From positions 21,244 through 85,243 of the IMG/VR virus record IMGVR_UViG_3300009788_000098: 64,000 bases of DNA; one strand, 5' to 3'. The notes under the pieces are model-generated. The model was given only the letters and a program-made list of their open reading frames with translations, was not told where the DNA came from and did no database searches. Source of the DNA: a virus. The translations under genes were made by a program, and so were the position numbers. The number at the start of each line of letters is the position of its first letter. Position 1 is the first letter of the stretch. Of this stretch, positions 9,934 to 63,814 are shown piece by piece.

Positions 9934-9934
9934 C

Positions 9935-10870: not shown

Positions 10871-10881
10871 GGGAGAATAGT

Positions 10882-11145: not shown

Positions 11146-11154
11146 CACACAAAC

Positions 11155-11206: not shown

Positions 11207-11249
11207 TATAGGATTTTAACACACAAGTAGAAATTTGTCAAGGAGAGAT

Positions 11250-16200: not shown

Positions 16201-16440
16201 GTGACAAAAGTATTGCATAATGTGTGTGATATATGTGGAAAAGACAGATTATGGAATGGTATTGCGGGATGGGCAGTTTTGAAACTGAAACCCAAAACTG
16301 AAGATGATAAAAAGACTTTGCTGTTTCAAGAATATTACAAGAATTACAGACAGTACTCTAGCAAAATGGATATATGTTATGTATGTACAAAAGAGTTTAT
16401 TGCTTGGTTAGCAAATCGAAAGCGGAAGGAACTGCAATGA
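16201..16440 (+). CDS. 79-residue zinc-binding protein
   Basis: GTG start right after the epimerase stop. CDICG near residue 10 and CYVC near residue 60 form a split zinc ribbon. The end overlaps the C-methyltransferase start (ATGA). Unknown role. Confidence 0.55.
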   Translation: MTKVLHNVCDICGKDRLWNGIAGWAVLKLKPKTEDDKKTLLFQEYYKNYRQYSSKMDICYVCTKEFIAWLANRKRKELQ

Positions 16441-17591: not shown

Positions 17592-18109
17592 AGTTCATTG
17601 AGACCGAATTTGATGGCGTGTGGCTTATCAAGGCTGAACAACACTGGGACTTGCGTGGTGGCTTTGCTCGTGGCTTCTGCGCGAGAGAGTTTGAAGAACA
17701 CAACTTGCCTACTAAAATTGTCCAGACTAATTGGGCGTATGACCACAGAGAAGGAACTTGGCGTGGGCTACATTATCAAGTTGCCCCTCATAAAGAAGCC
17801 AAACTTATTGTGCCGGTGAACAGAATACACGATATTATTATTGACCTGCGCCCCAAGTCGGATACTTACATGGAGTGGGGTTCATTCGTGCTTACAGGGC
17901 GTACTATGCTCTACGTTCCAGAAGGGTTTGCGCATGGTCATCAGGCAATGGAAGATAATGTGCGTATCTTCTACCACATGTTCAACTATTATAATCCTGA
18001 ACATAAGAGGGGAATACGGCATGATGATTCAGCATTCAGAATGTGGTTGCCACTAGAGATTACAGCAATGTCTTTGCAAGACAAGCATTGGCCTAACTAT
18101 GAAGCGTAG
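17588..18109 (+). CDS. rfbC: dTDP-4-dehydrorhamnose 3,5-epimerase-like enzyme
   Basis: 173 residues, near the family length of about 180. WRGLHYQ has the catalytic His, D84-region IIIDLRPKS, and YVPEGFAHGHQ holds the catalytic Tyr. It epimerises C3 and/or C5 of a 4-keto-6-deoxy NDP-sugar in a cupin fold. Next to a CDP-glucose enzyme it may act on a CDP-linked substrate. Overlaps its neighbours by 4 and 11 bases. Confidence 0.9.
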   Translation: MKFIETEFDGVWLIKAEQHWDLRGGFARGFCAREFEEHNLPTKIVQTNWAYDHREGTWRGLHYQVAPHKEAKLIVPVNRIHDIIIDLRPKSDTYMEWGSFVLTGRTMLYVPEGFAHGHQAMEDNVRIFYHMFNYYNPEHKRGIRHDDSAFRMWLPLEITAMSLQDKHWPNYEA

Positions 18110-19235
18110 CATACCTATCGCTGGCCCGTGGATTACCCAGAAGGAAATAGACTATGTTGCCGATGCTGTTGCAAATGCGTGGTATCAAGATGCCGGTATT
18201 TACCATGTGCGCTTTGAGAATGCGTTTGCAGAGTACGTTGGGCGCAAACATGCAATAGCACTCCCGACATGCACATCTGCAATTCACCTTGCACTATTAG
18301 CATTGGGAGTTGGCAAGGGCGATGAGGTTATTGTTCCTGAACTAACGTGGATTGCAACAGCAGCTCCCATTACTTATGTCGGTGCGACACCTGTGTTCTG
18401 CGATGTGGACAAAGATACGTGGTGCATGGACGTTGAGGCTTTGAAGATAGCAATAACACCAAGGACCAAGGCTATTATCCCTGTTGATCTCTACGGTGGG
18501 ATGCCCGACTATGATGAGATATTGAAGATTGCCAAGAAGCATAACATTGCTGTCATTGAAGACGCAGCCCAAGCTATCGGGTCTGAGTACAAGAAGCACA
18601 AAGCAGGCTCGTTTGGAACAGTTAGTTGCTTCTCGTTTCATGGTAGCAAGACGATGACTACGGGCGAGGGTGGAATGTTGGTTACTGACATGGACGAGGT
18701 ATATAACCGCGCATTACATTATCGTGACCATTGCCGTGAGGGTATATCATATCGAAGCGATGCAATCGGATACAAATATAAGATGTCATCCATGCAAGCG
18801 GCATTGGGGTTGGCACAGTTGGAGCGCATTGATGAGTTAGTTGAGAAGAAACTTAAATTGGCTGAATGGTATACTGATAGATTATGGAAGTGCAAAAAGA
18901 TAATTTGTTGGAACTTGGAAGCTTCTCACACGAAGAACTCGTATTGGATGACTTCAATCGTTATAGACTCTGATGAATATAATAATCCTGAGATATATCG
19001 AAACGAAGTGATGGAAGCATTAAAGGAAAGAAACATAGGTGTTCGTCCCGTGTTTTATCCACTGAGTCGCTTAGCAGCCTATGGTGCTTATTCTAAAGGT
19101 GAATACGTTAGTTATCGCAGTCCAAATGCCGACTATATAGGTCGGCGTGGTATCAGCCTTCCCTCAGCACTATGTCTGACAGAAGAAGATGTTGATTACG
19201 TGTGCAAGAACCTGCTGGAGATATTAGATGCGTAA
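18099..19235 (+). CDS. DegT/DnrJ/EryC1-type sugar aminotransferase
   Basis: 378 residues. The PLP lysine is K184 in SFHGSKTMTTGEGG; D155 in VIEDAAQAIG binds the pyridine nitrogen; TCTSAIHLAL binds phosphate. Type I fold, perosamine-synthetase-like. It moves an amino group to a keto-sugar nucleotide, so the product is probably an amino-sugar. It overlaps rfbC by 11 bases and the next reductase by 8. Confidence 0.92.
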   Translation: MKRSIPIAGPWITQKEIDYVADAVANAWYQDAGIYHVRFENAFAEYVGRKHAIALPTCTSAIHLALLALGVGKGDEVIVPELTWIATAAPITYVGATPVFCDVDKDTWCMDVEALKIAITPRTKAIIPVDLYGGMPDYDEILKIAKKHNIAVIEDAAQAIGSEYKKHKAGSFGTVSCFSFHGSKTMTTGEGGMLVTDMDEVYNRALHYRDHCREGISYRSDAIGYKYKMSSMQAALGLAQLERIDELVEKKLKLAEWYTDRLWKCKKIICWNLEASHTKNSYWMTSIVIDSDEYNNPEIYRNEVMEALKERNIGVRPVFYPLSRLAAYGAYSKGEYVSYRSPNADYIGRRGISLPSALCLTEEDVDYVCKNLLEILDA

Positions 19236-20076
19236 GATACTCGTTACAGGTGCAACTGGCTTCATCGGGAGGCAATGTTTGCAGTATCTAAACGACTATG
19301 AGGTTCATGCAACTTACTTGAGTGGTTGGAAATCAGAACGGTGGTTGACAACAGATGTTGTTTGGTATTGGGCAGATTTGCTAAATGATGCAAAATCTAT
19401 TATAGAGACAGTACGCCCAACTCACCTCTTGCACTTCGCATGGTTTATGGAACACGGGAAGTACTGGACTTCTGAAAAGAACTTGATATGGTTGCAGGCA
19501 AGTACAAACTTGCTACGTGCCTTTGCAGATAATGGTGGTCAACGTGTCGTGATAGCAGGTAGTTGTGCGGAGTTCGGTAAGTCCCTATACGGTATCTGCA
19601 AACATTCGCTTCAATTAGTCACAAGTGCATATTGCAAAGCGAGAGGTATTAGCAGTGCTTGGGGACGAATATTCTTTCCATACGGCGCTTATGAGAGACC
19701 TCAGCGGTTAGTACCTTACGTTATAAATAATCTACTACAAAACAAGGAAGCACTTTGCACAAGTGGCACTCAGGTTCGGGATTTGGTGTATGTATCTGAT
19801 GTCGCCAAGGCATTTGTAGACATTCTCAACTCGGACGTTCAGGGTGTTGTAAATATAGGTTCGGGAACAGGGACACCAATAAAGGAAGTTGTGACCACGA
19901 TTGGCAAATTGTTGCAACGGGAGGAGCTTATCAAACTATGTGCAGTTCCTGACCGACCTGATGAGACTGGAATTATCATTGCGAACAATAGTTGCTTGCA
20001 GGATATTGGCTGGTCACCTGAGTTTGATTTAGAGATTGGCATACAGAAAGCGATAGACTACTGGACATCAAAATGA
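19228..20076 (+). CDS. NAD(P)-dependent sugar reductase/epimerase (SDR)
   Basis: 282 residues. GATGFIG at residues 7-13, IAGSCAEFG near residue 112, and YGICK as YxxxK. The short length and the RDLVYVSDV box fit a 4-ketoreductase or epimerase acting late in deoxysugar synthesis. Overlaps the next methyltransferase by 4 bases. Confidence 0.85.
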   Translation: MRKILVTGATGFIGRQCLQYLNDYEVHATYLSGWKSERWLTTDVVWYWADLLNDAKSIIETVRPTHLLHFAWFMEHGKYWTSEKNLIWLQASTNLLRAFADNGGQRVVIAGSCAEFGKSLYGICKHSLQLVTSAYCKARGISSAWGRIFFPYGAYERPQRLVPYVINNLLQNKEALCTSGTQVRDLVYVSDVAKAFVDILNSDVQGVVNIGSGTGTPIKEVVTTIGKLLQREELIKLCAVPDRPDETGIIIANNSCLQDIGWSPEFDLEIGIQKAIDYWTSK

Positions 20077-41488: not shown

Positions 41489-41800
41489 TTACTCCACAAT
41501 TGATTCAACTATAATTGCGACTGTGCTGAGTGCAAACGGTATACAGAACAAAACTGTTGCTTCAGGAAAACGAGCGTAAGCAATGGTAACTATAACTCCA
41601 AACCATATACTGTTGCACCAAATACATGTCAATCCTTTAGCAAACTGGTTTCTACCATACGGTTTACTTTCTTCATCGTACTCAACACCAACAAGATGCC
41701 GAAACTTCTCAAATACCTCATAAGGGCCATCCTCGTGAGCTACCAGAGAAGAAATTCGCCATACAGCCAGTGCAATTAGAATAAACATGACAAATTTCAT
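41489..41800 (-). CDS. DUF1360-like membrane protein
   Basis: 103 residues from MKFVMFILIALAVWRISSLV. EDGPYEVFEKFRHLVG then LTCIWCNSIWFGV is the DUF1360 pattern, with a CxxC near the second helix. Two or three membrane segments. The same family occurs in phages and Bacillus spore-coat operons; role unknown. It sits behind a promoter, leader and terminator. Confidence 0.7.
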   Translation of the reverse strand: MKFVMFILIALAVWRISSLVAHEDGPYEVFEKFRHLVGVEYDEESKPYGRNQFAKGLTCIWCNSIWFGVIVTIAYARFPEATVLFCIPFALSTVAIIVESIVE

Positions 41801-41829
41801 CTTAATAGTCCAAATTACAATCAAAAAAA

Positions 41830-41881
41830 ACCGAGTGTGCTTCCTGCACGCTCGGTGTGAACGTTATATTTCTATTCAGTT
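41830..41881 (-). terminator. leader with intrinsic terminator (attenuator-like)
   Basis: On the minus strand the order is AACTGAATAGAA (41881-41870), TAACGTTCAC (41866-41857), then an 11-bp hairpin (41856-41846 with 41840-41830, one wobble, 5-base loop) and an eight-T run. It ends about 30 bases before the gene at 41800. The same two 5' blocks precede the terminator at 52045-52080. Confidence 0.8.
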
Positions 41882-41899
41882 GTCTGTTCAACTGTCTGT

Positions 41900-41928
41900 A
41901 TTATAGCACCATTGGTGCAAATATTCAA
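41900..41928 (-). promoter_or_regulatory. minus-strand promoter before the attenuator
   Basis: TTGAAT at 41928-41923, 17-base spacer, TATAAT at 41905-41900. Transcription would start near 41893 and reach the terminator after about 50 bases. It lies between the methyltransferase stop and the connector block. Confidence 0.75.
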
Positions 41929-41936
41929 GGATGAAA

Positions 41937-42620
41937 TCAGAATAAGAGTGGTTGCATCTGCGCTTCTGCTATGCGTTTTTGGGCTATGTCAAAGTAGTCG
42001 GGGTCAATTTCGATGCCAATAAACTTACGATTATGCTTAACTGAGGCCACACCTGCTGAGCATGAACCCATTGTGAAATCTAATACCGTATCGCCAATTT
42101 CTGTGCTGTCAAGTATCAGCTTTTCTATCAGCGGAACGGGTTTCTCGTTTGGATGTAGCAAGTCATTAGGCATAACCCGTCGCTGATTTATAATTGTTCT
42201 TGGTCTCTTTCGGGGAAAGACAAATCCATCTTTAATGGCAAACAGTATGCTTTCATGTTGCGGGGCATATTCACTATTTAAGTCGCCCATGCCATGAACA
42301 ATCTTATTCCATATAATTTGTGATTTTACATCAAATCCCGATGAAACAATCTCATTTAGAAATGCTTGTTGCTTATCCCATCTGTAAAATACATAGATAG
42401 CTTTTCTTGTTATTCTATAAGCATCTTTTCCCCACCCCAAAAACGGTTCTTTATCATTCCTTATCTTGGGTTTCCACTGCGTTTTGTCAGAGCGCCTGGC
42501 GCTCTGATAGTCTATTCCGTAAGGAGGGTCTACGATTGTCACGTCTGCGGAATTATCAGACATGTTTTGCATAATATCTAAACAGTCACCCAAATGCAGC
42601 TGACAGCTGTTTTCTATCAC
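41937..42620 (-). CDS. DNA methyltransferase (N6-A/N4-C) with altered SAM motif
   Basis: 227 residues, GTG start overlapping the end of the triple glycosyltransferase gene. Motif IV DPPYG is at residues 31-35. Motif I reads DFTMGSCSAGVA, where paralogues have GSGTTG. Tail AQMQPLLF as in the plus-strand copies. The changed glycine may weaken SAM binding, or the enzyme may have adapted. Part of the minus-strand glycosylation block. Confidence 0.85.
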   Translation of the reverse strand: MIENSCQLHLGDCLDIMQNMSDNSADVTIVDPPYGIDYQSARRSDKTQWKPKIRNDKEPFLGWGKDAYRITRKAIYVFYRWDKQQAFLNEIVSSGFDVKSQIIWNKIVHGMGDLNSEYAPQHESILFAIKDGFVFPRKRPRTIINQRRVMPNDLLHPNEKPVPLIEKLILDSTEIGDTVLDFTMGSCSAGVASVKHNRKFIGIEIDPDYFDIAQKRIAEAQMQPLLF

Positions 42621-48109: not shown

Positions 48110-48597
48110 TGTTTGCACAGTTGCTCCCACGTCTTGTTTATCCAGTATTCGTCATTCGGGGGTCTTTTGTCAGGTCTTGGGTCACATGCCAACCGACTCT
48201 CTGCCCAGTCGATGATATAGGGATGATTGTCCTTTACTATCACAGCAGCAGTAGTAAGATCGCCATGCCTGATGCCATACGCTCCCAATTCCCCCAATAT
48301 TCTCTGCTTGTGTTGCATAAACTTGTCTACATCTGTCACAGGTTGACTTTCTCCTAAATCATCCATAGCAATTGTAAATCTGTCCAGTCGCATGGCTCTT
48401 GGAACATAACCTGTGTGCTGTAACCTTCGCAGAATATATATCTCATTCTGTATCAAAAAGGGAATAGAGCGTTTATATATTTCCCCTTTGCCGCGCCACA
48501 CTATGCTAATGCCGTTGTCAGACAGTTTCTCAACCACCGCAAGCAGTGTCAGCTCATCGGGCGCAAACTCGTGTATCAGTTCTAACCAACGGTTCAT
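48106..48597 (-). CDS. small kinase/phosphotransferase-like protein
   Basis: 163 residues; start in an ATGA overlap (MNRWLELIHEFAPDE). GIRHGDLTTAAVIVKDNHPY, then IIDWAES, matches the HxD catalytic loop and DFG-like metal site of RIO/APH-type kinases. The N-lobe is short (about 60 residues), with ILRRLQHTGYVPRA after it. It may phosphorylate a sugar or small molecule. Confidence 0.7.
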   Translation of the reverse strand: MNRWLELIHEFAPDELTLLAVVEKLSDNGISIVWRGKGEIYKRSIPFLIQNEIYILRRLQHTGYVPRAMRLDRFTIAMDDLGESQPVTDVDKFMQHKQRILGELGAYGIRHGDLTTAAVIVKDNHPYIIDWAESRLACDPRPDKRPPNDEYWINKTWEQLCKQ

Positions 48598-48857
48598 GGG
48601 TTCTCCCAGCTCCATTCTGTAGCTAATTCTTTATGCCAATCATAGTTAGCACATGAACCAAGCAAGACGCAAACAAGGTCACCGTTAGAAATAGCTACTA
48701 TCTCTGCCCATTTGTGATACCAGTATTCTTTCTCTACTGCTTCTGCCAATTGCTTTGCTTCTTCAATAGTTGAACTAACACCACGATAGTCTGCCACTAT
48801 ATTTGGTAGTCTAATTTCGTCGTGCTGATAACAGAACTTTACAAATACGTAATACAT
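48594..48857 (-). CDS. 87-residue protein, first gene of the minus-strand glycosylation block
   Basis: MYYVFVKFCYQHDEIRLPNI, start behind AAGGAGAACAT and the promoter at 48876. Mixed alpha/beta with a helix (SSTIEEAKQLAEAVEKEYWY). No known family. Translationally coupled to the kinase-like gene. Confidence 0.6.
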   Translation of the reverse strand: MYYVFVKFCYQHDEIRLPNIVADYRGVSSTIEEAKQLAEAVEKEYWYHKWAEIVAISNGDLVCVLLGSCANYDWHKELATEWSWENP

Positions 48858-48875: not shown

Positions 48876-48904
48876 ATTGTAACAATTCTTGTCCAATTTG
48901 TCAA
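48876..48904 (-). promoter_or_regulatory. minus-strand promoter of the glycosylation block
   Basis: TTGACA at 48904-48899, 17-base spacer, TACAAT at 48881-48876. It gives the block between the capsid gene and the connector genes its own transcription, as expected for a moron-like insertion. Confidence 0.85.
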
Positions 48905-52015: not shown

Positions 52016-52044
52016 CTTTTACCCCAGTTGGGGCAACAAAAAAA

Positions 52045-52105
52045 CGGACGCACCTTTCCCATTTTCAGGGGGTACGTCCGATGTGAACGTTAGTTCTATT
52101 CAGTT
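52045..52105 (-). terminator. leader with intrinsic terminator before the protease gene
   Basis: On the minus strand: AACTGAATAGAA (52105-52094), TAACGTTCAC (52092-52083), then a 10-bp hairpin (52080-52071 with 52054-52045) and a T-run (A-run 52038-52044 on plus). It starts 17 bases after the -10 box and ends about 25 bases before the gene at 52015. Same design as 41830-41881. Confidence 0.8.
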
Positions 52106-52111
52106 ATCTTG

Positions 52112-52140
52112 ATTTTACACGTTTATTTGTGTGTTGTCAA
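52112..52140 (-). promoter_or_regulatory. minus-strand promoter before the protease leader
   Basis: TTGACA at 52140-52135, 17-base spacer, TAAAAT at 52117-52112. It produces the attenuator-like leader. The operator-like site at 52151-52174 lies just upstream. Confidence 0.8.
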
Positions 52141-52150: not shown

Positions 52151-52174
52151 GGACAATTATAGTCCGAATTATCC
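52151..52174. promoter_or_regulatory. operator-like palindrome, copy 1
   Basis: GGACA at 52151-52155, 14 bases, TATCC at 52170-52174. One base differs from the perfect copies at 57638 and 60731. It lies between the 52179 gene and the promoter at 52112. A half-site GGACA follows at about 52182. Confidence 0.6.
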
Positions 52175-52178
52175 TGTT

Positions 52179-52454
52179 TCAGGACATTATCTTCTTGAAA
52201 ACAGCTTTTAGGGTGTACGCAAGCTCTTTCTCGGTCATTTCGTTCATTAACATATCAACGCTGACACCCAACTTGGGTTCTAGCGGGATGATTTCAGGTG
52301 GCAACCAGAAGAACGGGATGCCGTTCTGCACCATTACAAGAATGTGCATGAACGATATTCCCTCCTTTTGTTTCGCTGTTGATTGAATACGCAGGAACAG
52401 GTTGTTCCACTGCGGGTTGATTTGTCTCTTTGGTTTGATTGTGTGATCGTTCAT
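52179..52454 (-). CDS. 91-residue virion-region protein
   Basis: MNDHTIKPKRQINPQWNNLF behind GGAAGGAGAACC. Helical C-terminus (VDMLMNEMTEKELAYTLKAV). Between the gp10-like and protease genes. No family recognised. Confidence 0.6.
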   Translation of the reverse strand: MNDHTIKPKRQINPQWNNLFLRIQSTAKQKEGISFMHILVMVQNGIPFFWLPPEIIPLEPKLGVSVDMLMNEMTEKELAYTLKAVFKKIMS

Positions 52455-52465
52455 GGTTCTCCTTC

Positions 52466-52960
52466 CTAGAATAAATTGAAAGATGCTTTTGCCATTGCCT
52501 TTGCTGTATTCAGTTGAAACGGTATTGTTCTCTTTAGTCTGACAGCAATATCAAAGCGACGTGCTGTAATGCCTTTGCGAGGAGCTGACATAGCTCTACG
52601 TCCCCGCGCAACAACTCTGCCACCGCCCGCACGAGTATTTAGCCGAAGGACACGAGTCTTTGATTGCCAGTCATCTGACATGATTGCCCATCGTTCATCC
52701 GTTCCCCAGTTAAGCCAAGACATGCGTGCTTCATTTGTGAATGCACTCGCAATTAGCCTGCCACCCTTTATTTCTACCTTTTTGGTATATGTAGGTCTTT
52801 CAGAATGTCTTGGGTCAGAACCAGAAAAGTTGTCTGACACCTTGCGAAATTCTTTCTCAATTGCTTTGGTCTCCTTCTCAGCAACTTTCCGCAACTCCTT
52901 CTCGTATTTCGCAATATTCATCTTCTTGGGAATAATTGCTTTCAAACTTATTCGTGCCAT
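52466..52960 (-). CDS. HK97 gp10-like head-tail joining protein
   Basis: 164 residues, basic. A long N-terminal helix, then SAFTNEARMSWLNWGTDERW, similar to the FLNYGT motif of gp10-like tail-completion proteins, and a basic C-terminus. Position upstream of the protease is unusual for this family. Confidence 0.6.
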   Translation of the reverse strand: MARISLKAIIPKKMNIAKYEKELRKVAEKETKAIEKEFRKVSDNFSGSDPRHSERPTYTKKVEIKGGRLIASAFTNEARMSWLNWGTDERWAIMSDDWQSKTRVLRLNTRAGGGRVVARGRRAMSAPRKGITARRFDIAVRLKRTIPFQLNTAKAMAKASFNLF

Positions 52961-54457
52961 CTACATATCCATCAAGTCTAGTATTTCTAATATTCCCATT
53001 ACCTCAACTACTTCTTCCTCCCTGATATCGTCAAACAAGTCACGTGCAATCGTGCGTAGCAATCTGGGATTAGGTCGCCCACTGAGGTTGTGCATTCCTG
53101 CCGCTACTGCTGGTGCTGCCGTGTAGACTGTGGCAATTGCGCCACCGAAGCTCATTGCTCCTGCATCTGCCTGGAAAAACAAAATCCCGCCACCGGGGAT
53201 AAACAAAGTAGCAAGTACACCTACGAATGTTATTGCACCTGCGAATGATTTCACTCCTTGCTTGGCTACTGTGCCGACAAAGGTTATCGCGCCCGCCAGG
53301 GGTTTTAGCGTCTCTCTAGCTAATGTTCCTGTGAATGTAATTGCTCCGGCAAGGGCCTTTCCTGCACGTGCTAGAACTGTACCCGTGAACGTGATTGCGC
53401 CAGTGATAGCTTTTAGTATGGTAGTCTTGGTGAGAGTGCCTACAAAAGTACTTGCACCAGCGAGTACCTTGAGCGCCTTTCCTATTGCTGTACCGGCGAA
53501 AGTAATCGCTCCTGCAATAGATTTGAATGTCATCTTGATAGCGGTAAGGGCACCATTGAAGGTAATCGCACCTGTGATGTCGTCTGGTATAGTCTTTCTA
53601 GCAAGCGTTCCAACAAAGGTAGATGCGCCAGCTAGTGCTTTCAGAGCTTTGGCAAGGAATGTGCCAACGAAGGTAATTGCGCCTGCTATTGACTGAAACG
53701 CTATCTTCATGCCAGTGACAGCACCGGTGAATGTGATTGCACCTGTGATGTCGTCTGGTATAGTCTTTTTAGCGAGTGTGCCGATGAATGTAGATGCACC
53801 AGCTAAGGCTTTTTGCGCCTTGGCTTTTAGGTTGCCAATAAAGGTTATCTCGCCTGCAACTGCTTGAGGAAATACTGCTGCTTCTACAACATTGATTGAT
53901 GGTGTGTTGTCATAAGCGTTGAGAAGCGTGTTGTCAGCTTGCAACATCCTGACTTCGATATCATCGGCATTATCAACTTGTGCGCTGTCAATAATGAAAA
54001 CTAGCTCGAACTCAGTCTGGTAAGGTTCAGCTCCGGCACTACCATCGTTGCCAAGAGTGACAGCACCCAGTACGTTATTCTCATCCATCTCCCCTGCTGT
54101 CCATTGAGGTGCTGTAGCTGCTAATTGCTCAGTTGTTGCATCGCCATCATTGATAACCCACGTGGTATCTGCTGATGCTGTGAATTGAATAGGAGTTCCT
54201 GCCCCTATGTCAATCCATACGCCAAATCCCTCGCCGCCGTCCAGTCGATATTGGAATTTGAGCGTAAATGCTGCTGTTTCTGTTACCGTTCCCTGGTTGT
54301 CAACTGCAATCTGAAAACGGACACGCTTGATGACATCAACGTCAATGTTGCCACCAGTATTGAGAGCGTATAGCCACGTAGCTCCTGCTTCTCCGCCGTC
54401 ATCGTTGCGAATGCGGAAGAGTGCCTGTTTTATGGTTGGGGGAATTGCCTTACCCAT
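52961..54457 (-). CDS. virion protein with 13 GA-ITF-G tandem repeats
   Basis: 498 residues. Residues 1-200 are a beta domain (WLYALNTGGNIDVDVIKRVR). Residues about 200-440 carry 13 repeats of about 18 residues with core GA(I/S)TF-x-G(T/A)(L/V), e.g. AGASTFIGTLAKK. Strongly regular, alternating hydrophobic and small residues. A helical acidic tail follows (DIREEEVVEVMGILEILDLM). Probably a long beta solenoid or fibre on the head. Function unknown. Confidence 0.8.
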   Translation of the reverse strand: MGKAIPPTIKQALFRIRNDDGGEAGATWLYALNTGGNIDVDVIKRVRFQIAVDNQGTVTETAAFTLKFQYRLDGGEGFGVWIDIGAGTPIQFTASADTTWVINDGDATTEQLAATAPQWTAGEMDENNVLGAVTLGNDGSAGAEPYQTEFELVFIIDSAQVDNADDIEVRMLQADNTLLNAYDNTPSINVVEAAVFPQAVAGEITFIGNLKAKAQKALAGASTFIGTLAKKTIPDDITGAITFTGAVTGMKIAFQSIAGAITFVGTFLAKALKALAGASTFVGTLARKTIPDDITGAITFNGALTAIKMTFKSIAGAITFAGTAIGKALKVLAGASTFVGTLTKTTILKAITGAITFTGTVLARAGKALAGAITFTGTLARETLKPLAGAITFVGTVAKQGVKSFAGAITFVGVLATLFIPGGGILFFQADAGAMSFGGAIATVYTAAPAVAAGMHNLSGRPNPRLLRTIARDLFDDIREEEVVEVMGILEILDLMDM

Positions 54458-54818
54458 ATCTTCGTTCTCCCTTTAGATATGCGCTTTTCAGTTGCAACAT
54501 CTTCTCGTCCATTGATTGCATTATTTTCTTGAACTGTTGGTCGGGGATGTATCTGCCGAATACCACCTTGCGCCAGCCAGGACGTGTAAGATAGTCAAAC
54601 ATGCCAAACTGGTCACCACCGAACCACTGGTTATGTTCATACCAATAGAAGTCCTTCGTGAGTGAGAACCAACCAACATCCTCTCGGAACTGAATTACTG
54701 CTTGAACATCGTCCCAAGGAACATCCTGTGGATCAATATCTAGGTTACTGAGTGTTGACCCGTCCCCGTAGAATACTAGCCATTCAGGATTACCCACCAG
54801 CCGTACAAGTGAGGTCAT
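54450..54818 (-). CDS. 122-residue virion-region protein
   Basis: MTSLVRLVGNPEWLVFYGDG, then aromatic-rich beta segment (WYEHNQWFGGDQFGMFDYLT). Overlaps both neighbours by 8 and 29 bases. No family recognised. Confidence 0.6.
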   Translation of the reverse strand: MTSLVRLVGNPEWLVFYGDGSTLSNLDIDPQDVPWDDVQAVIQFREDVGWFSLTKDFYWYEHNQWFGGDQFGMFDYLTRPGWRKVVFGRYIPDQQFKKIMQSMDEKMLQLKSAYLKGERRYG

Positions 54819-55401
54819 ATGTAAATTGTATGCTATCGAGATTGACCACGTTGATTGCGCCGAATGTGTGCCTGTCCATCAAGGTCACTCCAGCAGCATT
54901 GTTGAATAATCCATGTTCAGTGATTGCAAACGGGCCAGCAAATGTGACAGTGCCGACACTCTCGTAGATTACAGGTGTGTTCTCAACCTGGTTCCCCACT
55001 GCTCTAGCACCACCGTAAGGAATTCCCAGACCAACATCACCAATAACAGCGCCACCTACACCAGTCCCGCAGTCATGGTGCTTATAATCTCCCCACGTTG
55101 CTGTTTCTGCGATCAATTCATCAACCATGTCCTGACAGAACGCGGTTGTGACTACGCCGTGTGCAACGATACCGAGGTCGTATGACCAACCGGTTAATTT
55201 AGTTACTTTTGCGCTGAGTTGCCCACGCATGATGACAATGCCTGTTAACTTTGTGAACAGTCCGGCAAGGTGATAGATGAACAAGTTCCATAGGTAATTG
55301 GGGCGCAACCTATTCTTGATTGTGTAAGATACTATATCAATATAAGCGGGTATCTTGCGTGCTTTTACTGAGCCTTTGCTCATTAGTTTTGACGATATCA
55401 T
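54790..55401 (-). CDS. head decoration/structural protein
   Basis: 203 residues. The ending (VGTVTFAGPFAITEHGLFNN, then LMDRHTFGAINVVNLDSIQF) is common in phage structural proteins near the capsid genes. An N-terminal basic helix. Directly after the portal gene. Probable head protein. Confidence 0.65.
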   Translation of the reverse strand: MISSKLMSKGSVKARKIPAYIDIVSYTIKNRLRPNYLWNLFIYHLAGLFTKLTGIVIMRGQLSAKVTKLTGWSYDLGIVAHGVVTTAFCQDMVDELIAETATWGDYKHHDCGTGVGGAVIGDVGLGIPYGGARAVGNQVENTPVIYESVGTVTFAGPFAITEHGLFNNAAGVTLMDRHTFGAINVVNLDSIQFTYDLTCTAGG

Positions 55402-55404
55402 TTA

Positions 55405-57606
55405 TTACTCCTTAGCTTTCCTTCTCTTTAATCCTATGATCTCACCCATCTCGTTGCGTTCAAGCTCAATGTCTTCGTTGATGCGTTCTTTCTCTTTCGG
55501 AACGTTAACCGTAATGGGTGGTGCGTTGATTTCTTGAGGTGATATATTGACCACCGGGGGCTTTTGTGGAGGGATATTGATTATAGGTGCGTCTTGTTTC
55601 GGGACATTGACCACTGGTGCTGAGACGTTTACAGTAGGCGTTTTCTGTTCAGGAATATTGACTGTAACCTGAGCAGGGGGAACGTCTACTGCAACAACTG
55701 TTGGCGGTTCAGGTTGGTCAAGGGCATCTTGTAATGCACCCAGTGCCTTCCTGATACTGCGTTTCTTAGATTTGCGACTGAATATACTCATTATGCCCTT
55801 TTTAAAATCTCTAGGACTATTCTCTTGGGATAGATTGGCTTCATCCGAAGGGCGAACACCTATCGCTGACTCATCTTCTGCGTTACTATCTGCCCCCTCA
55901 CGGACACCTTGCCGACCTTCAGATGTGATGCCTTGTGCTCGTTCTTGTGCAGATAACTCTTCTTCTTGAACGCTAAGGACTGTCTCATATTGTAGTTGTA
56001 GGTCTCGTAAAGCTGCCAAAGCCTCCCTCGCTCTGCGAGATGCGTTTTGTTTACTCTCATTGGCAATTACCTCCATGGCGACAGGGATTTGCTTCGATAT
56101 TGCGTCTAGCACATTATCAGGGTCGTTCCCGCGGATGTCCAGTGGGTCTGAGATGCCGGGGAGCGCCAAGATAGTTGTGTATTCAGGTTTTTCATTGTAG
56201 AATAGAGTTTCTAGTGGTTTCCCGTTAGGGAGACGACCATCGCCCAGTTCTAGTTCCGCAAACTGAGCAGTGCTAATCTCGCTCTCTCGCACCATGCGTT
56301 CTCGCTCTGCGCGCAAGTCTGTAACACCGACTGCAATGTCTTGCTTACGAGTGAGTGAACGCTCCTTGCGTATCTCAGCCCGTTGTCGATCTTGTGCATC
56401 GTCCTGATAATCAAACACCATCTTGAGATAAGGCGGGAGGAAATAGTTATTGAACATGTGTTCTGTTTGCTGGATAATCTGACCAGGGCCTTTGCCGCGC
56501 TGCTTGATGTGAGAGAGTAGTGCATCTGCCCTTGTAGCCCCACTTTGGGACTGAGGCCATAGTTCTCGTGCATCAACACCGAAGGCAAGGGCAATAGCTG
56601 CCATAGCGATGTCTGTGGATGACTGCTCATCAAAACCGTCCGGGAGTTCTGAGAGGTTGATTAGTGCAATGTCAGGTTCTTCAATGTCGGGGCTGCCGAT
56701 AATAGGCAACATGGCGAATCTGCGTAGACCACGACTGTCTGCAATGTTATCTGTAGTCTGTAGGGCTGTGCCAACTGATTCGGCGTCTAGTCCGCCTTTG
56801 ACTAATAGAATGCCACGTTTGGGACGTGAACCTAGCTTCTCTTCTTTGTAGACCGAAATGTCAAGCATATGTTGGGCGTAGGATGCGGCACGTGAAATAG
56901 CACTGAGTCCCACGCCTAGCATCTCAATGCGCTCTGAAGGAAGTTGGGAGTTATATGCAACTCTTGTCCAGTGTATCTTGCGAAGAGTGCCGTCTGTTCG
57001 TTGATAAACTACTGGATATTTGGGGTTAGAGGTACGCGTACAGCGATTCGGACTCATGTGTGCCACCGATATAGCAGGGCCGAGTAGAGGGCCGACCTTG
57101 TTCTTTGACAGATCGATGATCTCCATAAACCGTCCATTGTCTTGACCAAGCAGGGATTGTAACTGTTTGGAGAAGAATGGTATCCATCCCTCCCCAAACT
57201 CAGCTGATTCGTAAAGGCGGCGCTCAAAGCGAGATGCTTCTCGGAAGTGGGCAGTAATGGCAGGGTCTCGCGGCTCGATATGGAACGGGATTGTCGTTAG
57301 CTTGCTCACCATGGCATACATTGCGCCTGAGAGCAGGTTGACCGACTTCCAGAACTCTGTTAGCGAACTATCCCGCTGCCTTGACCACCACGGGGGAAGG
57401 GTATCAGATGCGAAGTAGAGATATGAGAGGTTGCTAAGCACTCCACCGCCAATTGGGGCTTCGCCTTTGGGACGTGCCTGTAAAGATTGTTGGCGTGCTT
57501 CCTCAACGAGAGGGATATTGGCTTTTACGACCTTGATAGCATTTTTTCCGTTACCACCACTCTCTGCAATCTTTATTGCTTCCTCAGCATCAAAAACACC
57601 TTTCAT
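55405..57606 (-). CDS. portal protein with C-terminal repeat tail
   Basis: 733 residues from MKGVFDAEEAIKIAESG (GGAG 7 bases before). The core matches phage portals: FWKSVNLLSGAMYAMVSKLT, HMSPNRCTRTSNPKYPVVY, AIALAFGVDARELWP, and helical wing TRADALLSHIKQRG. Residues about 640-715 hold a Pro/Val repeat (VVNVPKQDAP, IINIPPQKPP, VVNISPQE), which is unusual for portals. It forms the ring through which DNA enters. First gene of the virion operon. Confidence 0.88.
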   Translation of the reverse strand: MKGVFDAEEAIKIAESGGNGKNAIKVVKANIPLVEEARQQSLQARPKGEAPIGGGVLSNLSYLYFASDTLPPWWSRQRDSSLTEFWKSVNLLSGAMYAMVSKLTTIPFHIEPRDPAITAHFREASRFERRLYESAEFGEGWIPFFSKQLQSLLGQDNGRFMEIIDLSKNKVGPLLGPAISVAHMSPNRCTRTSNPKYPVVYQRTDGTLRKIHWTRVAYNSQLPSERIEMLGVGLSAISRAASYAQHMLDISVYKEEKLGSRPKRGILLVKGGLDAESVGTALQTTDNIADSRGLRRFAMLPIIGSPDIEEPDIALINLSELPDGFDEQSSTDIAMAAIALAFGVDARELWPQSQSGATRADALLSHIKQRGKGPGQIIQQTEHMFNNYFLPPYLKMVFDYQDDAQDRQRAEIRKERSLTRKQDIAVGVTDLRAERERMVRESEISTAQFAELELGDGRLPNGKPLETLFYNEKPEYTTILALPGISDPLDIRGNDPDNVLDAISKQIPVAMEVIANESKQNASRRAREALAALRDLQLQYETVLSVQEEELSAQERAQGITSEGRQGVREGADSNAEDESAIGVRPSDEANLSQENSPRDFKKGIMSIFSRKSKKRSIRKALGALQDALDQPEPPTVVAVDVPPAQVTVNIPEQKTPTVNVSAPVVNVPKQDAPIINIPPQKPPVVNISPQEINAPPITVNVPKEKERINEDIELERNEMGEIIGLKRRKAKE

Positions 57607-57637
57607 GCGTATCTCCTGTACCCACAAGGGGTAATTC

Positions 57638-57661
57638 GGACAATTTCAGTCTTATTTGTCC
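57638..57661. promoter_or_regulatory. operator-like palindrome, copy 2
   Basis: GGACA 57638-57642, 14 bases, TGTCC 57657-57661. It abuts the -10 box of the minus promoter and covers its predicted start site (about 57655), the classical place for a repressor. Confidence 0.75.
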
Positions 57662-57690
57662 ATTATAGCATACGCGGGTGATTATTACAA
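57662..57690 (-). promoter_or_regulatory. main virion-operon promoter
   Basis: TTGTAA at 57690-57685, 17-base spacer, TATAAT at 57667-57662. It drives the portal and downstream head genes. Its -35 and that of the divergent promoter form an inverted repeat, ATTACAA/TTGTAAT, 9 bases apart. Confidence 0.8.
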
Positions 57691-57699
57691 GATTGATTG

Positions 57700-57728
57700 T
57701 TGTAATTCTTCGTGGTGTATGATATAAT
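57700..57728 (+). promoter_or_regulatory. divergent promoter of the HNH gene
   Basis: TTGTAA 57700-57705, 17-base spacer, TATAAT 57723-57728. It faces away from the virion promoter. About 100 bases of leader precede the HNH gene. Confidence 0.75.
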
Positions 57729-57847
57729 ACAATTGACCTTGGGCAGATAAAATGAAATATGGAATAATCTTATAAGTTAGCTCCTTGTGCTGTTTGCCTT
57801 TGGTCAGGTATTTCATCAGTATAAGGAGTTTTCTATTGAGGTGTAAT

Positions 57848-58417
57848 ATGTATAAGGCAATAATGACGGAGATGAGAAAAACTGGATTGACATTGAAAGA
57901 AATAGGTCAGATTTTTGGAGAAAGAAAACAAAAAATACACTATATAGTTGGAAACACAGGAAGACTGACGCCGATACAACGTTTCTGGAAAAAAGTAAAT
58001 CGTTTAACATCTGATAATTGTTGGGAATGGACAGGGGCTAAACTTGCTACCAAATATGGAGGAATGGAGATTAATGGTAAACTAATTCGTGTCCATCGTT
58101 ATTCTTGGGAAATAGCCTTTGGCGAAATACCAAAAGGTTTGCATGTTCTTCATAAATGCGACAATCGATCTTGTGTAAATCCCAATCATCTGTGGTTGGG
58201 AACTCACCAAGACAATATGAGAGATCGAGATGAGAAAGGAAGAGGCAAGCCTGGGGGAAAAGAGGGAACTTCTCTTTTATCGCCTAATTTAGTGAGAGCA
58301 ATACGAAGACGGTACGAGAACGGGATGAACTATGCACAAATAGCAAGACTAGTTAAATACAACCCAGGTGCTATTCATCAAATTGTAAATCGCAAGACGT
58401 ACAAACATGTAATATAA
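57848..58417 (+). CDS. HNH endonuclease
   Basis: 189 residues. CWEWTGAKLATKYGGM, then VLHKCDNRSCVNPNHLWLGT, the phage HNH signature (His, Asn, His and zinc Cys), and a C-terminal HTH-like segment (MNYAQIARLVKYNPGAIHQI). The N-terminal MRKTGLTLKEIGQIFGERKQ is another HTH. A TTG at 57836, 7 bases after AAGGAG, is an alternative start. Homing or packaging nuclease. Confidence 0.85.
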   Translation: MYKAIMTEMRKTGLTLKEIGQIFGERKQKIHYIVGNTGRLTPIQRFWKKVNRLTSDNCWEWTGAKLATKYGGMEINGKLIRVHRYSWEIAFGEIPKGLHVLHKCDNRSCVNPNHLWLGTHQDNMRDRDEKGRGKPGGKEGTSLLSPNLVRAIRRRYENGMNYAQIARLVKYNPGAIHQIVNRKTYKHVI

Positions 58418-58473
58418 TATGTTTCTGTTCACTTGCCGTACAGATAGGCATTTTGGCAAGGGGTAATTCTACT

Positions 58474-58502
58474 TTGACTTACGATAGAGAGTATGGTAGA
58501 AT
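58474..58502 (+). promoter_or_regulatory. promoter of the cytosine methyltransferase (predicted leaderless)
   Basis: TTGACT 58474-58479, 17-base spacer, TAGAAT 58497-58502. The ATG at 58509 is 6 bases after the -10, so it should be at +1. Confidence 0.8.
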
Positions 58503-58508
58503 ACAAGT

Positions 58509-59639
58509 ATGAGATACGGTAGCCTGTTTTCAGGGATAGGTGGGTTTGATTTGGGCTTTGAGCGAGCAGGAATGGAATGTATATGGCAAGTTGAAATTGA
58601 TGAGCATTGCAACAAGGTGCTAGGAAAACATTTCCCAAATGTAAGGAGGCGCACAGATGTCAGAGAAGTCGGAAAAGGACTTGAACCAGTTGAGCTTATT
58701 TGCGGGGGCTTCCCCTGTCAAGACCTCTCCGTTGCCGGAAAGCGGAAGGGCTTGGTTGGAGAGCGATCAGGACTTTGGTTCGAGTTCCATAGAATTGTTG
58801 AAGAGCTTACTCCCAAGTGGGTTGTCATTGAGAATGTACCCGGTCTCCTCTCAAGCAACGGAGGGGAAGATTTTGCTATCATCCTTCAAGGGCTGGTCAA
58901 ATGCGGGTATGGCGTGTCGTGGAGGATACTGGACAGCCAGTATTTCGGAGTGGCACAGAGACGCAGACGTGTGTTCATTATCGGAAGTCTTGGAAACGGA
59001 CGTTCCGCAGAAGTATTATTTGAGTGCGAAAGCCTGTCAGGGAATCCTGCGAAGGGCAGAAAAACGAGGGAAGAAGATACCGAAAGAATTACATCGGGTT
59101 TTGGTCACTCAGGCGGGAAAACAGTCAAGCTAAATCCCATTGCTAACACGCTCAACGCACAAAGCGGAAGCAAAACAACAGCTATGATACAAGGAGTAGC
59201 TGTCATTCAACAAAATACTCGTGATGAAGTTAGAGTAGTGGGTGATGGCAAGATAGCAGGTGCATTACCAGCACAGCCAGGAATGAAACAACAAAATTAT
59301 GTAGTATTTGACTGGCAATCCGGCGGTGATGTCCGCCTAAATGTTTCAGACAAACATACAAGTGCATTACAAGCAAGTCAAACACCTGCTGTAGTCATTC
59401 CTGCATTTGATGGTCGTGCAGGCAGACAAACACTCAAATCACAACGGATACCAGAGGTGAGAAGTAGCCTACATGGTGTACGCCGACTAACCCCAACAGA
59501 GTGTGAGCGTCTACAAGCGTTTCCAGATGGGTGGACAGACAAGCAATCAGATACCCAACGCTACAAGCAGCTTGGAAATGCAGTAACGGTCAATGTGACT
59601 GAATGGATTGGCAAACGCATAGTTGCTCAAGTACTTTGA
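58509..59639 (+). CDS. dcm: DNA (cytosine-5)-methyltransferase
   Basis: 376 residues. Motif I LFSGIGGFDLGFERAG, motif IV GGFPCQDLS with the catalytic Cys, motif VI VIENVPGLLS, motif VIII QRRRRVFIIG, and motif X LGNAVTVNV. The middle (about residues 180-310) is the target-recognition region. It forms 5-methylcytosine, probably against restriction. No nuclease partner adjacent. A second gene lies inside in another frame. Confidence 0.95.
   Translation: MRYGSLFSGIGGFDLGFERAGMECIWQVEIDEHCNKVLGKHFPNVRRRTDVREVGKGLEPVELICGGFPCQDLSVAGKRKGLVGERSGLWFEFHRIVEELTPKWVVIENVPGLLSSNGGEDFAIILQGLVKCGYGVSWRILDSQYFGVAQRRRRVFIIGSLGNGRSAEVLFECESLSGNPAKGRKTREEDTERITSGFGHSGGKTVKLNPIANTLNAQSGSKTTAMIQGVAVIQQNTRDEVRVVGDGKIAGALPAQPGMKQQNYVVFDWQSGGDVRLNVSDKHTSALQASQTPAVVIPAFDGRAGRQTLKSQRIPEVRSSLHGVRRLTPTECERLQAFPDGWTDKQSDTQRYKQLGNAVTVNVTEWIGKRIVAQVL
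58657..59133 (+). CDS. nested gene in another frame of the methyltransferase
   Basis: 158 residues wholly inside the C5-methyltransferase gene, +1 frame. The ATG has AAGGAGG 7 bases upstream, the best ribosome site nearby. The C-terminal motif (QKYYLSAKACQGILRRAEKR) belongs, as far as I recall, to a phage protein family often found next to or over Dcm genes. Other parts: GWSNAGMACRGGYWTASISE. Function unknown. Confidence 0.75.
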   Translation: MSEKSEKDLNQLSLFAGASPVKTSPLPESGRAWLESDQDFGSSSIELLKSLLPSGLSLRMYPVSSQATEGKILLSSFKGWSNAGMACRGGYWTASISEWHRDADVCSLSEVLETDVPQKYYLSAKACQGILRRAEKRGKKIPKELHRVLVTQAGKQSS

Positions 59640-59692
59640 CTTATCTACGTGAGATTTTTGAGCAGATTAGACCCACAAGGGGTAAAAGCCCG

Positions 59693-59712
59693 TAATCACC
59701 CCCCCCACTAGC
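59693..59712 (+). repeat. 20-bp element shared with 13136-13155
   Basis: TAATCACCCCCCCCACTAGC, identical to 13136-13155, about 55 bases after the methyltransferase stop and upstream of the promoter at 59764. Confidence 0.8.
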
Positions 59713-59763
59713 GGGTGTTGCCATTGTGTCAACAAGGATGTGCGTTATTGACAGTTATTGCCC

Positions 59764-59792
59764 TTGACATCTAGTTTATAGTATGCTATACT
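59764..59792 (+). promoter_or_regulatory. strong promoter with no gene behind it
   Basis: TTGACA 59764-59769, 17-base spacer, TATACT 59787-59792. A second TTGACA lies at 59748. The next 250 bases contain hairpins but no ORF with a ribosome site. Confidence 0.75.
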
Positions 59793-59798
59793 AAATTA

Positions 59799-60040
59799 TT
59801 CTTCTCCTCCTTTCACGAAGAATGAGACGATCAGCCATGAGATTGGCAATGGTCGTCTCCTTGCTGTTAAATAATACATGCCCCCAAACTCATCGAGCAG
59901 GGGGCATGGGGCCAAAAATTTGCCCGGGCTTTGCCTGGGGTACCAGCGAAAGATATGCCTACATGGTTAGTAGGTTAGCCGCACCCACCCATACGGGTAG
60001 TATTCGACTGCGCTTCCGCAATATTATTGTATCATAACTT
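59799..60040 (+). ncRNA. candidate noncoding RNA with serial hairpins
   Basis: Predicted start near 59799. Hairpins: 59824-59859 (GAGACGATCA/TGGTCGTCTC with inner GCCA/TGGC), 59877-59908 (perfect 9 bp CATGCCCCC/GGGGGCATG), 59923-59939 (CCCGGGC/GCCTGGG with TTT loop), and small stems near 59990-60025. No tRNA cloverleaf. A 71-codon frame at 59822 lacks a ribosome site. Possibly an sRNA, a packaging or replication site, or a decoy. Confidence 0.5.
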
Positions 60041-60090
60041 TCAAGCTATTGCAATCTCTCGCGTTGTTTTACCTTCCCTATTTACAACAA

Positions 60091-60360
60091 TCATTGTGTA
60101 TGATTCTTTCCTCTAAACTTTTCTGCGTATTCAGTAGTAATACTTTCCAGTCGCTCCAAACTTATATGTTGCTTTCCTAGCACCCTTTGTAATATTTTAT
60201 ATACTTCCTCGTCGTCATCAAAATCAAAGTTATATCTTAGGTCACTTGTGTTCCCTTCAACTGCACTCCACAGGAATTTCAATAATTCAGCCCGCATCTC
60301 CGCATAGTATATTTCTCTCTTCATTAGGTCAACTTGGTTTTGCTTTCTAGGTTTGTTCAT
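60091..60360 (-). CDS. 89-residue protein of unknown function
   Basis: MNKPRKQNQVDLMKREIYYA after AAAGGAGAAAATA. Helical, acidic middle (YNFDFDDDEEVYKILQRVLG). Its start overlaps the end of the 60605 frame by one base. No family. Confidence 0.6.
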   Translation of the reverse strand: MNKPRKQNQVDLMKREIYYAEMRAELLKFLWSAVEGNTSDLRYNFDFDDDEEVYKILQRVLGKQHISLERLESITTEYAEKFRGKNHTQ

Positions 60361-60605
60361 TATTTTCTCCTTTTCTTTAAGGTTTTACAAGCACGCAATT
60401 CCCATGTTCTTTGCCTGTTTATCCAGTAGCTAATCATTTCGCTTTGACTTGCCACCCGGCAATCCCTACCGTGGCCCACATCTCCTATCTCATCAAAGTA
60501 TATCCTGGGTCTGGATACTAGCTGCCCCTTGGGGCAACTGTTACTCCTTCTACACCATGGTAGCCGAGCTAATAGTAGTATATCACGATTGTTGGTTAAA
60601 TGCAA
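60360..60605 (-). CDS. weakly supported basic protein
   Basis: About 81 codons from a TTG with no clear ribosome site; the true start may be further downstream. The C-terminus (EMISYWINRQRTWELRACKT) looks helical and coding-like, and the end overlaps the next gene. The promoter at 60679 lies upstream. Confidence 0.4.
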   Translation of the reverse strand: MHLTNNRDILLLARLPWCRRSNSCPKGQLVSRPRIYFDEIGDVGHGRDCRVASQSEMISYWINRQRTWELRACKTLKKRRK

Positions 60606-60678
60606 ACGCCCTCACGAATGAGAGCGCTTACATTAGTAGCTCAAAAGACAAAGCCGTTGCTAAGTCGAGGTTGACTAT

Positions 60679-60707
60679 AGTATACCACAATTTTCCCCCT
60701 ATTGCAA
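60679..60707 (-). promoter_or_regulatory. minus-strand promoter
   Basis: TTGCAA at 60707-60702, 17-base spacer, TATACT at 60684-60679. It drives the 60605 and 60360 genes. TTGCAA is palindromic and might also serve the divergent promoter, with a short 15-base spacer to TACAAT at 60723. Confidence 0.7.
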
Positions 60708-60730
60708 CTCGTACTCTTGCGGTACAATTA

Positions 60731-60754
60731 GGACACGAATTATCCGAATTGTCC
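60731..60754. promoter_or_regulatory. operator-like palindrome, copy 3
   Basis: GGACA 60731-60735, 14 bases, TGTCC 60750-60754, just after a TACAAT -10 box at 60723-60728 that precedes the virion gene at 60780. Inside is a tandem GAATTATCC/GAATTGTCC. Same position relative to -10 as copy 2. Confidence 0.75.
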
Positions 60755-60779
60755 CCGTGAAGGGGAAGGAGTCTACGAT

Positions 60780-61379
60780 ATGCCACCTACCAAGAGAAAA
60801 ATGGGTCAAGGGACTGTACAACCAATGGCTCTGTTCGCTGCTGATGGAACAGCTATTGACTTTGACCATGAACTAATTGCACAAGTACCAACCTCAATTC
60901 TCGTTCCTCACCGTGCTGTCCATTTAGGTGTCACATTCCTGGTGTGCTACAAATCGCCTGAAGGAAGTGAGATAGCCGACAATGCCAGCATTAACTTTAT
61001 TATTAACTCAAGATACTCAATGCACTTGTCTTTTCTAGGTGCTGCTGGCGGTGACGCTGAATTAGCACTTTGGGAAAATACAACCTATACCGACGGCTCG
61101 CTTATCTCGCCACTGAATATGAACCGTGATTCAGGAGCTTATCCCGATGTGGCGCGCAGAGACGTAACTGTAACAGCTTACGGAACTAACCTGCTCAACA
61201 TCTTCCTGCCCGGTGGTACTGGAGGCAACTCGTCAGGTGGAGTGTTGCGACTGGGAACTGAGTTTGTTCTAAGCGCCGATACAAACTACTTGCTGGAAAA
61301 CATCAACCGCGCAGGTCAGGCACAGTCCATGTCACTTCACGCAGAGTGGTACGAAGCAGAACGGGCCGTAATCCCCTAA
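60780..61379 (+). CDS. virion (capsid-fibre/decoration-type) protein
   Basis: 199 residues, GAAGGAG before the ATG. The part MHLSFLGAAGGDAELALWEN, then SPLNMNRDSGAYPDVARRDV, and RLGTEFVLSADTNYLLENIN with a C-terminal HAEWYEAERAVIP is common in phage proteins encoded near capsids. It stands alone on the plus strand but shares an operator with the virion operon. Probably an outer head protein. Confidence 0.7.
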   Translation: MPPTKRKMGQGTVQPMALFAADGTAIDFDHELIAQVPTSILVPHRAVHLGVTFLVCYKSPEGSEIADNASINFIINSRYSMHLSFLGAAGGDAELALWENTTYTDGSLISPLNMNRDSGAYPDVARRDVTVTAYGTNLLNIFLPGGTGGNSSGGVLRLGTEFVLSADTNYLLENINRAGQAQSMSLHAEWYEAERAVIP

Positions 61380-61433
61380 AATCATTCACAATCCCCTGCA
61401 AACAGGGGAAACCCCCTGTAAAGGGCGGGAATT

Positions 61434-61457
61434 GGACAAAAAAGGTCTTATTTATCC
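61434..61457. promoter_or_regulatory. operator-like palindrome, copy 4
   Basis: GGACA 61434-61438, 14 bases, TATCC 61453-61457, one base off the perfect form. An extra GGACA half-site is at about 61463. It lies between convergent genes, so it may be an accessory or looping site. Confidence 0.55.
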
Positions 61458-61460: not shown

Positions 61461-61769
61461 TTAGGACACAATCTCAACCTTGTAGCCAAGTTCCTTCTCG
61501 ACCTCTTCCACAGTCATTTGTTTGGACGCGACTTCTGCATCGTATAAAACCGTGCGATATTCAGGTTTCCAGCACCAGCCAGAACCACCCAAAACCTTAA
61601 CTATCCGATATTGGGGAGCTTCTTTACAAAAGCTAAATATCTCTAGCCGATCCCACCCTCCTTTGTAAATCACCATGTCAGTACCCTGAATAGTATCTCG
61701 TACTATTAATCCAACTTGACCTTCATTTGTTACAATCATCATCCCCGATTTCAAATCTTCCATTTTCAT
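61461..61769 (-). CDS. 102-residue protein of unknown function
   Basis: MKMEDLKSGMMIVTNEGQVG, 8 bases after GGAG. SH3-like start followed by a beta segment (YKGGWDRLEIFSFCKEAPQY) and a helical end (TVEEVEKELGYKVEIVS). No named family. Confidence 0.6.
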   Translation of the reverse strand: MKMEDLKSGMMIVTNEGQVGLIVRDTIQGTDMVIYKGGWDRLEIFSFCKEAPQYRIVKVLGGSGWCWKPEYRTVLYDAEVASKQMTVEEVEKELGYKVEIVS

Positions 61770-63339: not shown

Positions 63340-63355
63340 TAGAACACATGTTCTA
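63340..63355. promoter_or_regulatory. LexA-like palindrome, copy 1
   Basis: TAGAACACATGTTCTA: TAGAACA and TGTTCTA arms around CA. It fits the Gram-positive LexA pattern GAAC-N4-GTTC. Identical at 63733. It bounds the G-rich segment on the left. Confidence 0.65.
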
Positions 63356-63389
63356 CGGAATCGATACGCGGTCTGCATGGTGTGCGGCT

Positions 63390-63732: not shown

Positions 63733-63748
63733 TAGAACACATGTTCTA
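63733..63748. promoter_or_regulatory. LexA-like palindrome, copy 2
   Basis: TAGAACACATGTTCTA, identical to 63340-63355. The next bases (CAGAA) also match with one change. A weaker relative, AGAACATCTGTGCT, is at 63763. Confidence 0.65.
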
Positions 63749-63814
63749 CAGAACGCCTGTCCAGAACATCTGTGCTAGGCTGCGTAAAATTGGCGTAAAG
63801 GCGCTGTGATTGCC

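What the first reader, a model, noticed from the sequence alone, without database searches (positions are those of the whole stretch)
52151..61457. Four copies of a GGACA-N14-TRTCC operator
Copies at 57638 and 60731 are perfect palindromes at the arms and each directly follows a -10 box, on opposite strands, ahead of the portal operon and of a separate virion gene. Copies at 52151 and 61434 differ by one base. Equal spacing and placement argue for one regulator that coordinates late genes. Its gene is not identified; the 28181 product is one candidate.
Basis: partly seen in the sequence, partly recalled or inferred. Interest (0 to 1): 0.75.

Follow-up and report, generated by a model that had tools for sequence, protein, structure and literature searches.

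The report
Shared three-part DNA element in phages
The four look-alike DNA sites are real, and they belong to a roughly 34-letter DNA element that also occurs in arrays in five other environmental phage sequences, probably as a docking site for one still unidentified DNA-binding protein.

Summary
GGACA-N14-TRTCC occurs at four loci in the window (0.14 strand-hits expected) and nowhere else in the 85,243-bp viral contig. Pattern scans found the same element, in 9-23 copies each, in five other viral contigs from other metagenomes; G000 shares only generic genes with them. Sixty-one aligned copies give a ~34-bp consensus made of three copies of one 9-bp half-site, AAWTYRGAC: two head-to-tail, one inverted. 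A matrix built without this contig still ranks its sites first and adds weaker ones at 41788 and 48880, so there are six. Mirror positions do not covary, so it is read as duplex DNA, not an RNA hairpin. In G005 one copy lies inside ungapped conserved coding sequence, so not every copy is an insert. The late-gene reading fails: structural relatives with 61%-identical portal lack the element, the other phages carry it among small accessory genes, and the proposed 28181 regulator has no detectable homologue there. Best reading: an operator for a multimeric DNA-binding protein, in this phage over three core promoters (repressor-like) and in gaps between transcription units. The protein and the host are unidentified.

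The parts
61434..61457 (-). element copy (24-bp core): GGATAAATAAGACCTTTTTTGTCC; convergent 3' gap, 3 bp after stop of gene 61461-61769
   Evidence: leave-one-out score 36.6 against best shuffle 13.6
52151..52174 (-). element copy: GGATAATTCGGACTATAATTGTCC; between stop of gene 52179-52454 and promoter of gene 50453
   Evidence: leave-one-out score 35.5
57638..57661 (-). element copy: GGACAAATAAGACTGAAATTGTCC; directly after -10 TATAAT of the portal operon, so about -6 to +18
   Evidence: leave-one-out score 32.9
60722..60754 (+). overlapping element registers (60722 + and 60731 -) directly after -10 TACAAT ahead of gene 60780-61379
   Evidence: leave-one-out score 20.7
41788..41811 (+). weaker element copy over the start codon of gene 41489-41800, just after an intrinsic terminator
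   Evidence: leave-one-out score 25.8; sequence
48880..48903 (-). weaker element copy between -35 TTGACA and -10 TACAAT of gene 48594-48857
   Evidence: leave-one-out score 18.1; promoter; sequence
57662..57690 (-). promoter TTGTAA-17-TATAAT ahead of the portal operon
52112..52140 (-). promoter TTGACA-17-TAAAAT downstream of the 52151 element
60723..60728 (+). -10 box TACAAT ahead of gene 60780
   Evidence: sequence; -35 poor
55405..57606 (-). putative portal gene, first gene of the operon behind the 57638 element
   Evidence: no family match; 61% identical relatives next to a terminase
60780..61379 (+). gene between the 60731 and 61434 elements, unknown function
   Evidence: phrog_5335, E 1.9e-9

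Best explanation
The sites are copies of one ~34-bp duplex DNA element, AAWTNGGAYAAWTNRGACCNNAWTTGTCCRAWTT, i.e. three 9-bp half-sites AAWTYRGAC: U1 and U2 head-to-tail, U3 inverted. It is most likely the binding site of a multimeric sequence-specific DNA-binding protein. In this phage the copies at 57638, 60731 and 48880 cover the core promoter or start point, so binding should block initiation. The copies at 52151, 61434 and 41788 lie in gaps between transcription units or at a gene start, where a bound protein could insulate neighbouring units or act as a roadblock. Because unrelated phages share the element and no regulator gene was found in common, the protein is more likely of the host, or picked up together with the sites, than a conserved phage late regulator. 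Shown: the element, its anatomy, its recurrence in six contigs, its position, no covariation. Inferred: a protein, repression, who encodes it.
For: Excess over chance. Same element in G001-G005: 24-bp matrix hits at score 15 or more were 9, 23, 9, 9, 19 for G000-G004 against 0.0-0.5 in shuffles; 23 hits with the 34-bp matrix in G005. Leave-one-contig-out matrices recover each set; the best shuffled score for this contig is 13.6 against 20.7-36.6 for the four reported sites. Three half-sites with the same consensus. No covariation of mirror positions. 74 of 92 copies lie outside called genes in contigs that are 80-90% coding. A G005 copy lies in ungapped conserved coding sequence of a GP88-type protein. 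Three copies in this phage cover -35/-10 or the start point.
Against: No binding protein identified; no family common to all six contigs, the widest being a GH25 lysin (5 of 6) and a C5 methylase (4 of 6). Two of the four reported copies do not overlap a promoter. Head-to-head pairs around phage-specific linkers (GGAGCTCC, GCCCATGGGC) look duplicated and are not explained by repression alone. No expression data.
Confidence: 0.55

Rival explanations
1. Mobile or self-copying palindromic repeat (REP/BIME or MITE-like) that has spread in non-coding DNA, with no regulatory role of its own.
For: Head-to-head pairs with phage-specific linkers, 11 GGAGCTCC in G001 and 5 GCCCATGGGC in G002; lineage-specific presence, absent at the syntenic gap of L007.
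Against: Members of a pair are diverged while half-site positions stay fixed; a G005 copy lies in ungapped conserved coding sequence; copies in this phage sit exactly on core promoters.
Confidence: 0.15
2. Binding site of an activator that coordinates late (virion) genes.
For: All six copies in this phage lie in or next to the minus-strand structural cluster and its head; the 52151 copy sits at an activator-like distance upstream of a promoter.
Against: Relatives with 61% identical portal and the same gene order lack it; in G001-G005 it lies among small accessory genes; two copies occlude the start point; no homologue of the 28181 product elsewhere.
Confidence: 0.1
3. Dispersed centromere (parC-like) sites bound by a ParR-type adaptor of an actin-based partition system.
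For: This contig encodes a ParM-like actin (ALP_N 5e-28, phrog_691 'partition protein' 7e-54; nearest solved pCBH ParM), and no iteron array was found beside it; repeated half-sites fit such adaptors.
Against: G001-G005 carry as many or more copies but no ParM by either model; copies sit at promoters; the putative adaptor is unproven (model pLDDT 56).
Confidence: 0.07
4. RNA hairpin acting as terminator, 3' stabiliser or leader element.
For: Arms are partly complementary; several copies follow stop codons.
Against: Mirror positions do not covary in 61 copies; at 57638 and 60731 the first arm would lie upstream of a standard transcription start; copies occur between divergent genes in G001.
Confidence: 0.04

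Closest known systems
Stoperators and operators of cluster A mycobacteriophages (L5-type repressor; PMC9283540, PMC6550527)
   Same: Many copies of one site for one protein across a phage genome, at promoters and in gaps between genes.
   Different: Stoperators are asymmetric single sites bound by a monomeric repressor (PMC9283540); here there are three 9-bp half-sites in ~34 bp, often paired head-to-head, no repressor found, and the sites are shared by unrelated phages.
Scattered centromere sites of linear plasmid-prophages such as N15
   Same: Several dispersed inverted-repeat sites in a phage genome (from general knowledge).
   Different: No matching partition protein common to the contigs; five of six lack the ParM actin by the models searched.
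REP/BIME palindromic repeats of bacterial genomes
   Same: Pairs of imperfect palindromes in inverted orientation in non-coding DNA (from general knowledge).
   Different: No transposase or insertion boundary found; half-sites are constrained, and one copy is inside conserved coding sequence.

Membership tests
Phage operator/stoperator set | multiple near-identical sites far above chance in one phage genome | tested here: met
Phage operator/stoperator set | sites at promoters or in gaps between genes | tested here: met
   74 of 92 outside called genes; promoter overlap at 57638, 60731, 48880
Phage operator/stoperator set | cognate repressor encoded by the phage | tested here: inconclusive
   no shared regulator family by phmmer or Pfam scans; an unrecognised one is not excluded
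Phage operator/stoperator set | protein binding and effect on transcription | not testable with these tools
   needs gel shift and reporter assays
ParMRC centromere | ParM-type actin in the same replicon | tested here: not met
   present in G000 only, no match in G001-G005
ParMRC centromere | iterons next to parMR | tested here: not met
   no iteron array found at record 16400-19990
Structured RNA element | covariation of paired positions | tested here: not met
   61 copies; z within +/-1.5 at mirror pairs inside the element, largest 2.7 in the far flank; no Rfam match
Mobile palindromic repeat (REP/MITE) | copies are insertions relative to empty sites | tested here: inconclusive
   G005 copy at 62042 lies in ungapped conserved coding sequence; syntenic gap of L007 lacks the element but shows no clean boundary

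The most novel reading that the evidence does not exclude
A so far undescribed, widespread regulatory or architectural DNA element of uncultivated phages, three AAWTYRGAC half-sites recognised by one host protein, that unrelated phages of the same host group have each acquired and laid out between their transcription units.
Probability: 0.35. Interest if true: 0.75.

Novelty: new variant of a known kind. Interest (0 to 1): 0.5.

Why it matters
A DNA element shared by phages that otherwise have little in common points to a common partner, probably in the host. Finding that protein would link these uncultivated phages to a host group and show a control layer acquired by convergence or transfer. 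The consensus is specific enough to be used as a search tool for such phages and as bait for the protein.

Tried and rejected
RNA-hairpin reading: rejected for lack of covariation and because the first arm is probably not transcribed at the two promoter copies. Chance: rejected. ParR/parC: considered after finding ParM, then demoted because five contigs lack it. Bacterial carriers: nine genome hits were single matches with no second copy in the whole genome, and 2 of 400 genomes in the phylum of one of them matched, once each; no host found. Cultured phages and plasmids: no convincing match. Helical phasing of neighbouring copies: only weak (p about 0.01-0.05), not claimed. Copy orientation relative to genes: explained by the head-to-head pairing, not claimed. 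Structure predictions of the 28181 product and the ParR candidate: too poor to use. Searches for closer relatives through the proteins at 60780, 42617 and 50453 found none. Literature searches found nothing on this motif, but the library is partial.

Full report
Observation. The window is bases 21244-85243 of an 85,243-bp IMG/VR viral contig, here G000. GGACA-N14-TRTCC occurs at four loci, 52151, 57638, 60731 and 61434; 6 strand-hits against 0.14 expected, reached by none of 100 shuffles, and not in the other 21 kb. The sequence statements of the finding hold, with one correction: only 57638 and 60731 follow a -10 box. 52151 lies between a stop codon and a TTGACA-17-TAAAAT promoter, and 61434 lies between convergent genes.

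The motif is larger. In one orientation the four copies read GGAYAAWTMRGAY-N6-TGTCC. Using such degenerate patterns on viral contigs brought in five further contigs with arrays: G001 (IMGVR_UViG_3300040801_002879, 87 kb), G002 (3300036885_000753, 18 kb), G003 (3300030325_000008, 90 kb), G004 (3300027917_000041, 72 kb) and G005 (3300010413_000039, 68 kb). With a 24-bp matrix at score 15 or more, G000-G004 have 9, 23, 9, 9 and 19 hits against 0.0-0.5 in shuffles; some hits in G000 are overlapping registers of one site. G005 has 23 with the 34-bp matrix. The arrays are mostly confined to one part of each contig.

Independence. G001, G002, G003 and G005 share genes with each other; G000 shares with them only generic ones (GH25 lysin, methylases and a few weak matches). 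A matrix built without G000 scores its sites 36.6 (61434), 35.5 (52151), 32.9 (57638), 25.8 (41788), 20.7 (60722/60731) and 18.1 (48880), against a best shuffled score of 13.6. So G000 has six copies. The first matrix was seeded with the G000 sites, so the choice of the other contigs is not independent of them; the number of copies in those contigs and the leave-one-out test are what carries the claim. 48880 lies between the -35 and -10 of gene 48594-48857; 41788 covers the start codon of gene 41489-41800, just after an intrinsic terminator.

Anatomy. Sixty-one aligned copies (G000-G004) give AAWTNGGAYAAWTNRGACCNNAWTTGTCCRAWTT. It consists of three copies of one 9-bp half-site, AAWTYRGAC: U1 and U2 adjacent head-to-tail, U3 inverted; the three base counts agree position by position. 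Mirror positions show no covariation, and W/W positions vary independently, so the constraint is on duplex sequence, not on a hairpin. In G001 most copies come in head-to-head pairs 44-46 bp apart around GGAGCTCC, in G002 around GCCCATGGGC. In G005 a copy at 62042 lies within conserved, ungapped coding sequence of a GP88-family protein (family), which argues against every copy being an insert.

Position. 74 of 92 copies lie outside called genes; ORFs were called by a simple script, so this count is approximate. In G000 the element covers the start region at 57638 (about -6 to +18 if transcription starts at the usual distance) and 60731, and the promoter spacer at 48880.

Conservation. L005-L008 encode a portal 61% identical to that of G000, and L007 keeps the order of the neighbouring structural genes, but none has the element. 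At the gap that corresponds to 52151, L007 keeps a promoter and the leader CGTTCACACCGAGCG but has no element. The element has therefore turned over within the structural lineage, while it recurs in unrelated phages.

Who binds it. No regulator family is common to the contigs. The 28181 product has no homologue in the other five. G000 encodes a ParM-like actin, but the other five do not by the same models, so a centromere role does not explain the set. The nine bacterial genomes that matched a pattern hold a single copy each, and 400 genomes of the phylum of one of them gave 2 single matches; the host is unknown.

Mechanism. The most likely reading is an operator for a multimeric DNA-binding protein, acting by occlusion at three G000 promoters and as a boundary or roadblock elsewhere. 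The element, its anatomy, its recurrence and its positions are shown; the protein, its origin and repression are inferred.

Noticed in passing
window 52030-52140 (-) and 41820-41930 (-); L007 10603-10763: Promoter-leader-terminator modules with a shared leader (ACTGAATAGAA..TAACGTTCACAYCG, then a hairpin and T-run) at two places; a relative keeps the CGTTCACACCGAGCG part at the syntenic gap. Possible attenuator or small RNA; no Rfam match.
   Followed up: partly
G000 record 18157-19137 (L009), upstream of the window: ParM-like actin (nearest solved: pCBH ParM) followed by a 105-aa ORF that could be its adaptor; no iteron array found beside it. Suggests a plasmid-like phase of the phage.
   Followed up: partly
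window 63340-63360 and 63733-63753: Palindrome TAGAACACATGTTCTA in two nearly identical copies near the contig end, resembling GAAC-N4-GTTC boxes.
   Followed up: no
window 57848-58417: HNH endonuclease with a C-terminal sigma-region-4-like helix-turn-helix between the portal operon and a C5 cytosine methylase (58509-59639).
   Followed up: no
window 6227-6319 and 41937-42029: Inverted 93-nt repeat, 81% complementary: two N6/N4 methylase paralogues on opposite strands; a third such methylase at 3631-4371.
   Followed up: no
L013 about 5400-11500 (G001): Promoters of small genes in G001 carry paired GTTAAC palindromes upstream of the -35, a second repeated motif of that phage.
   Followed up: no
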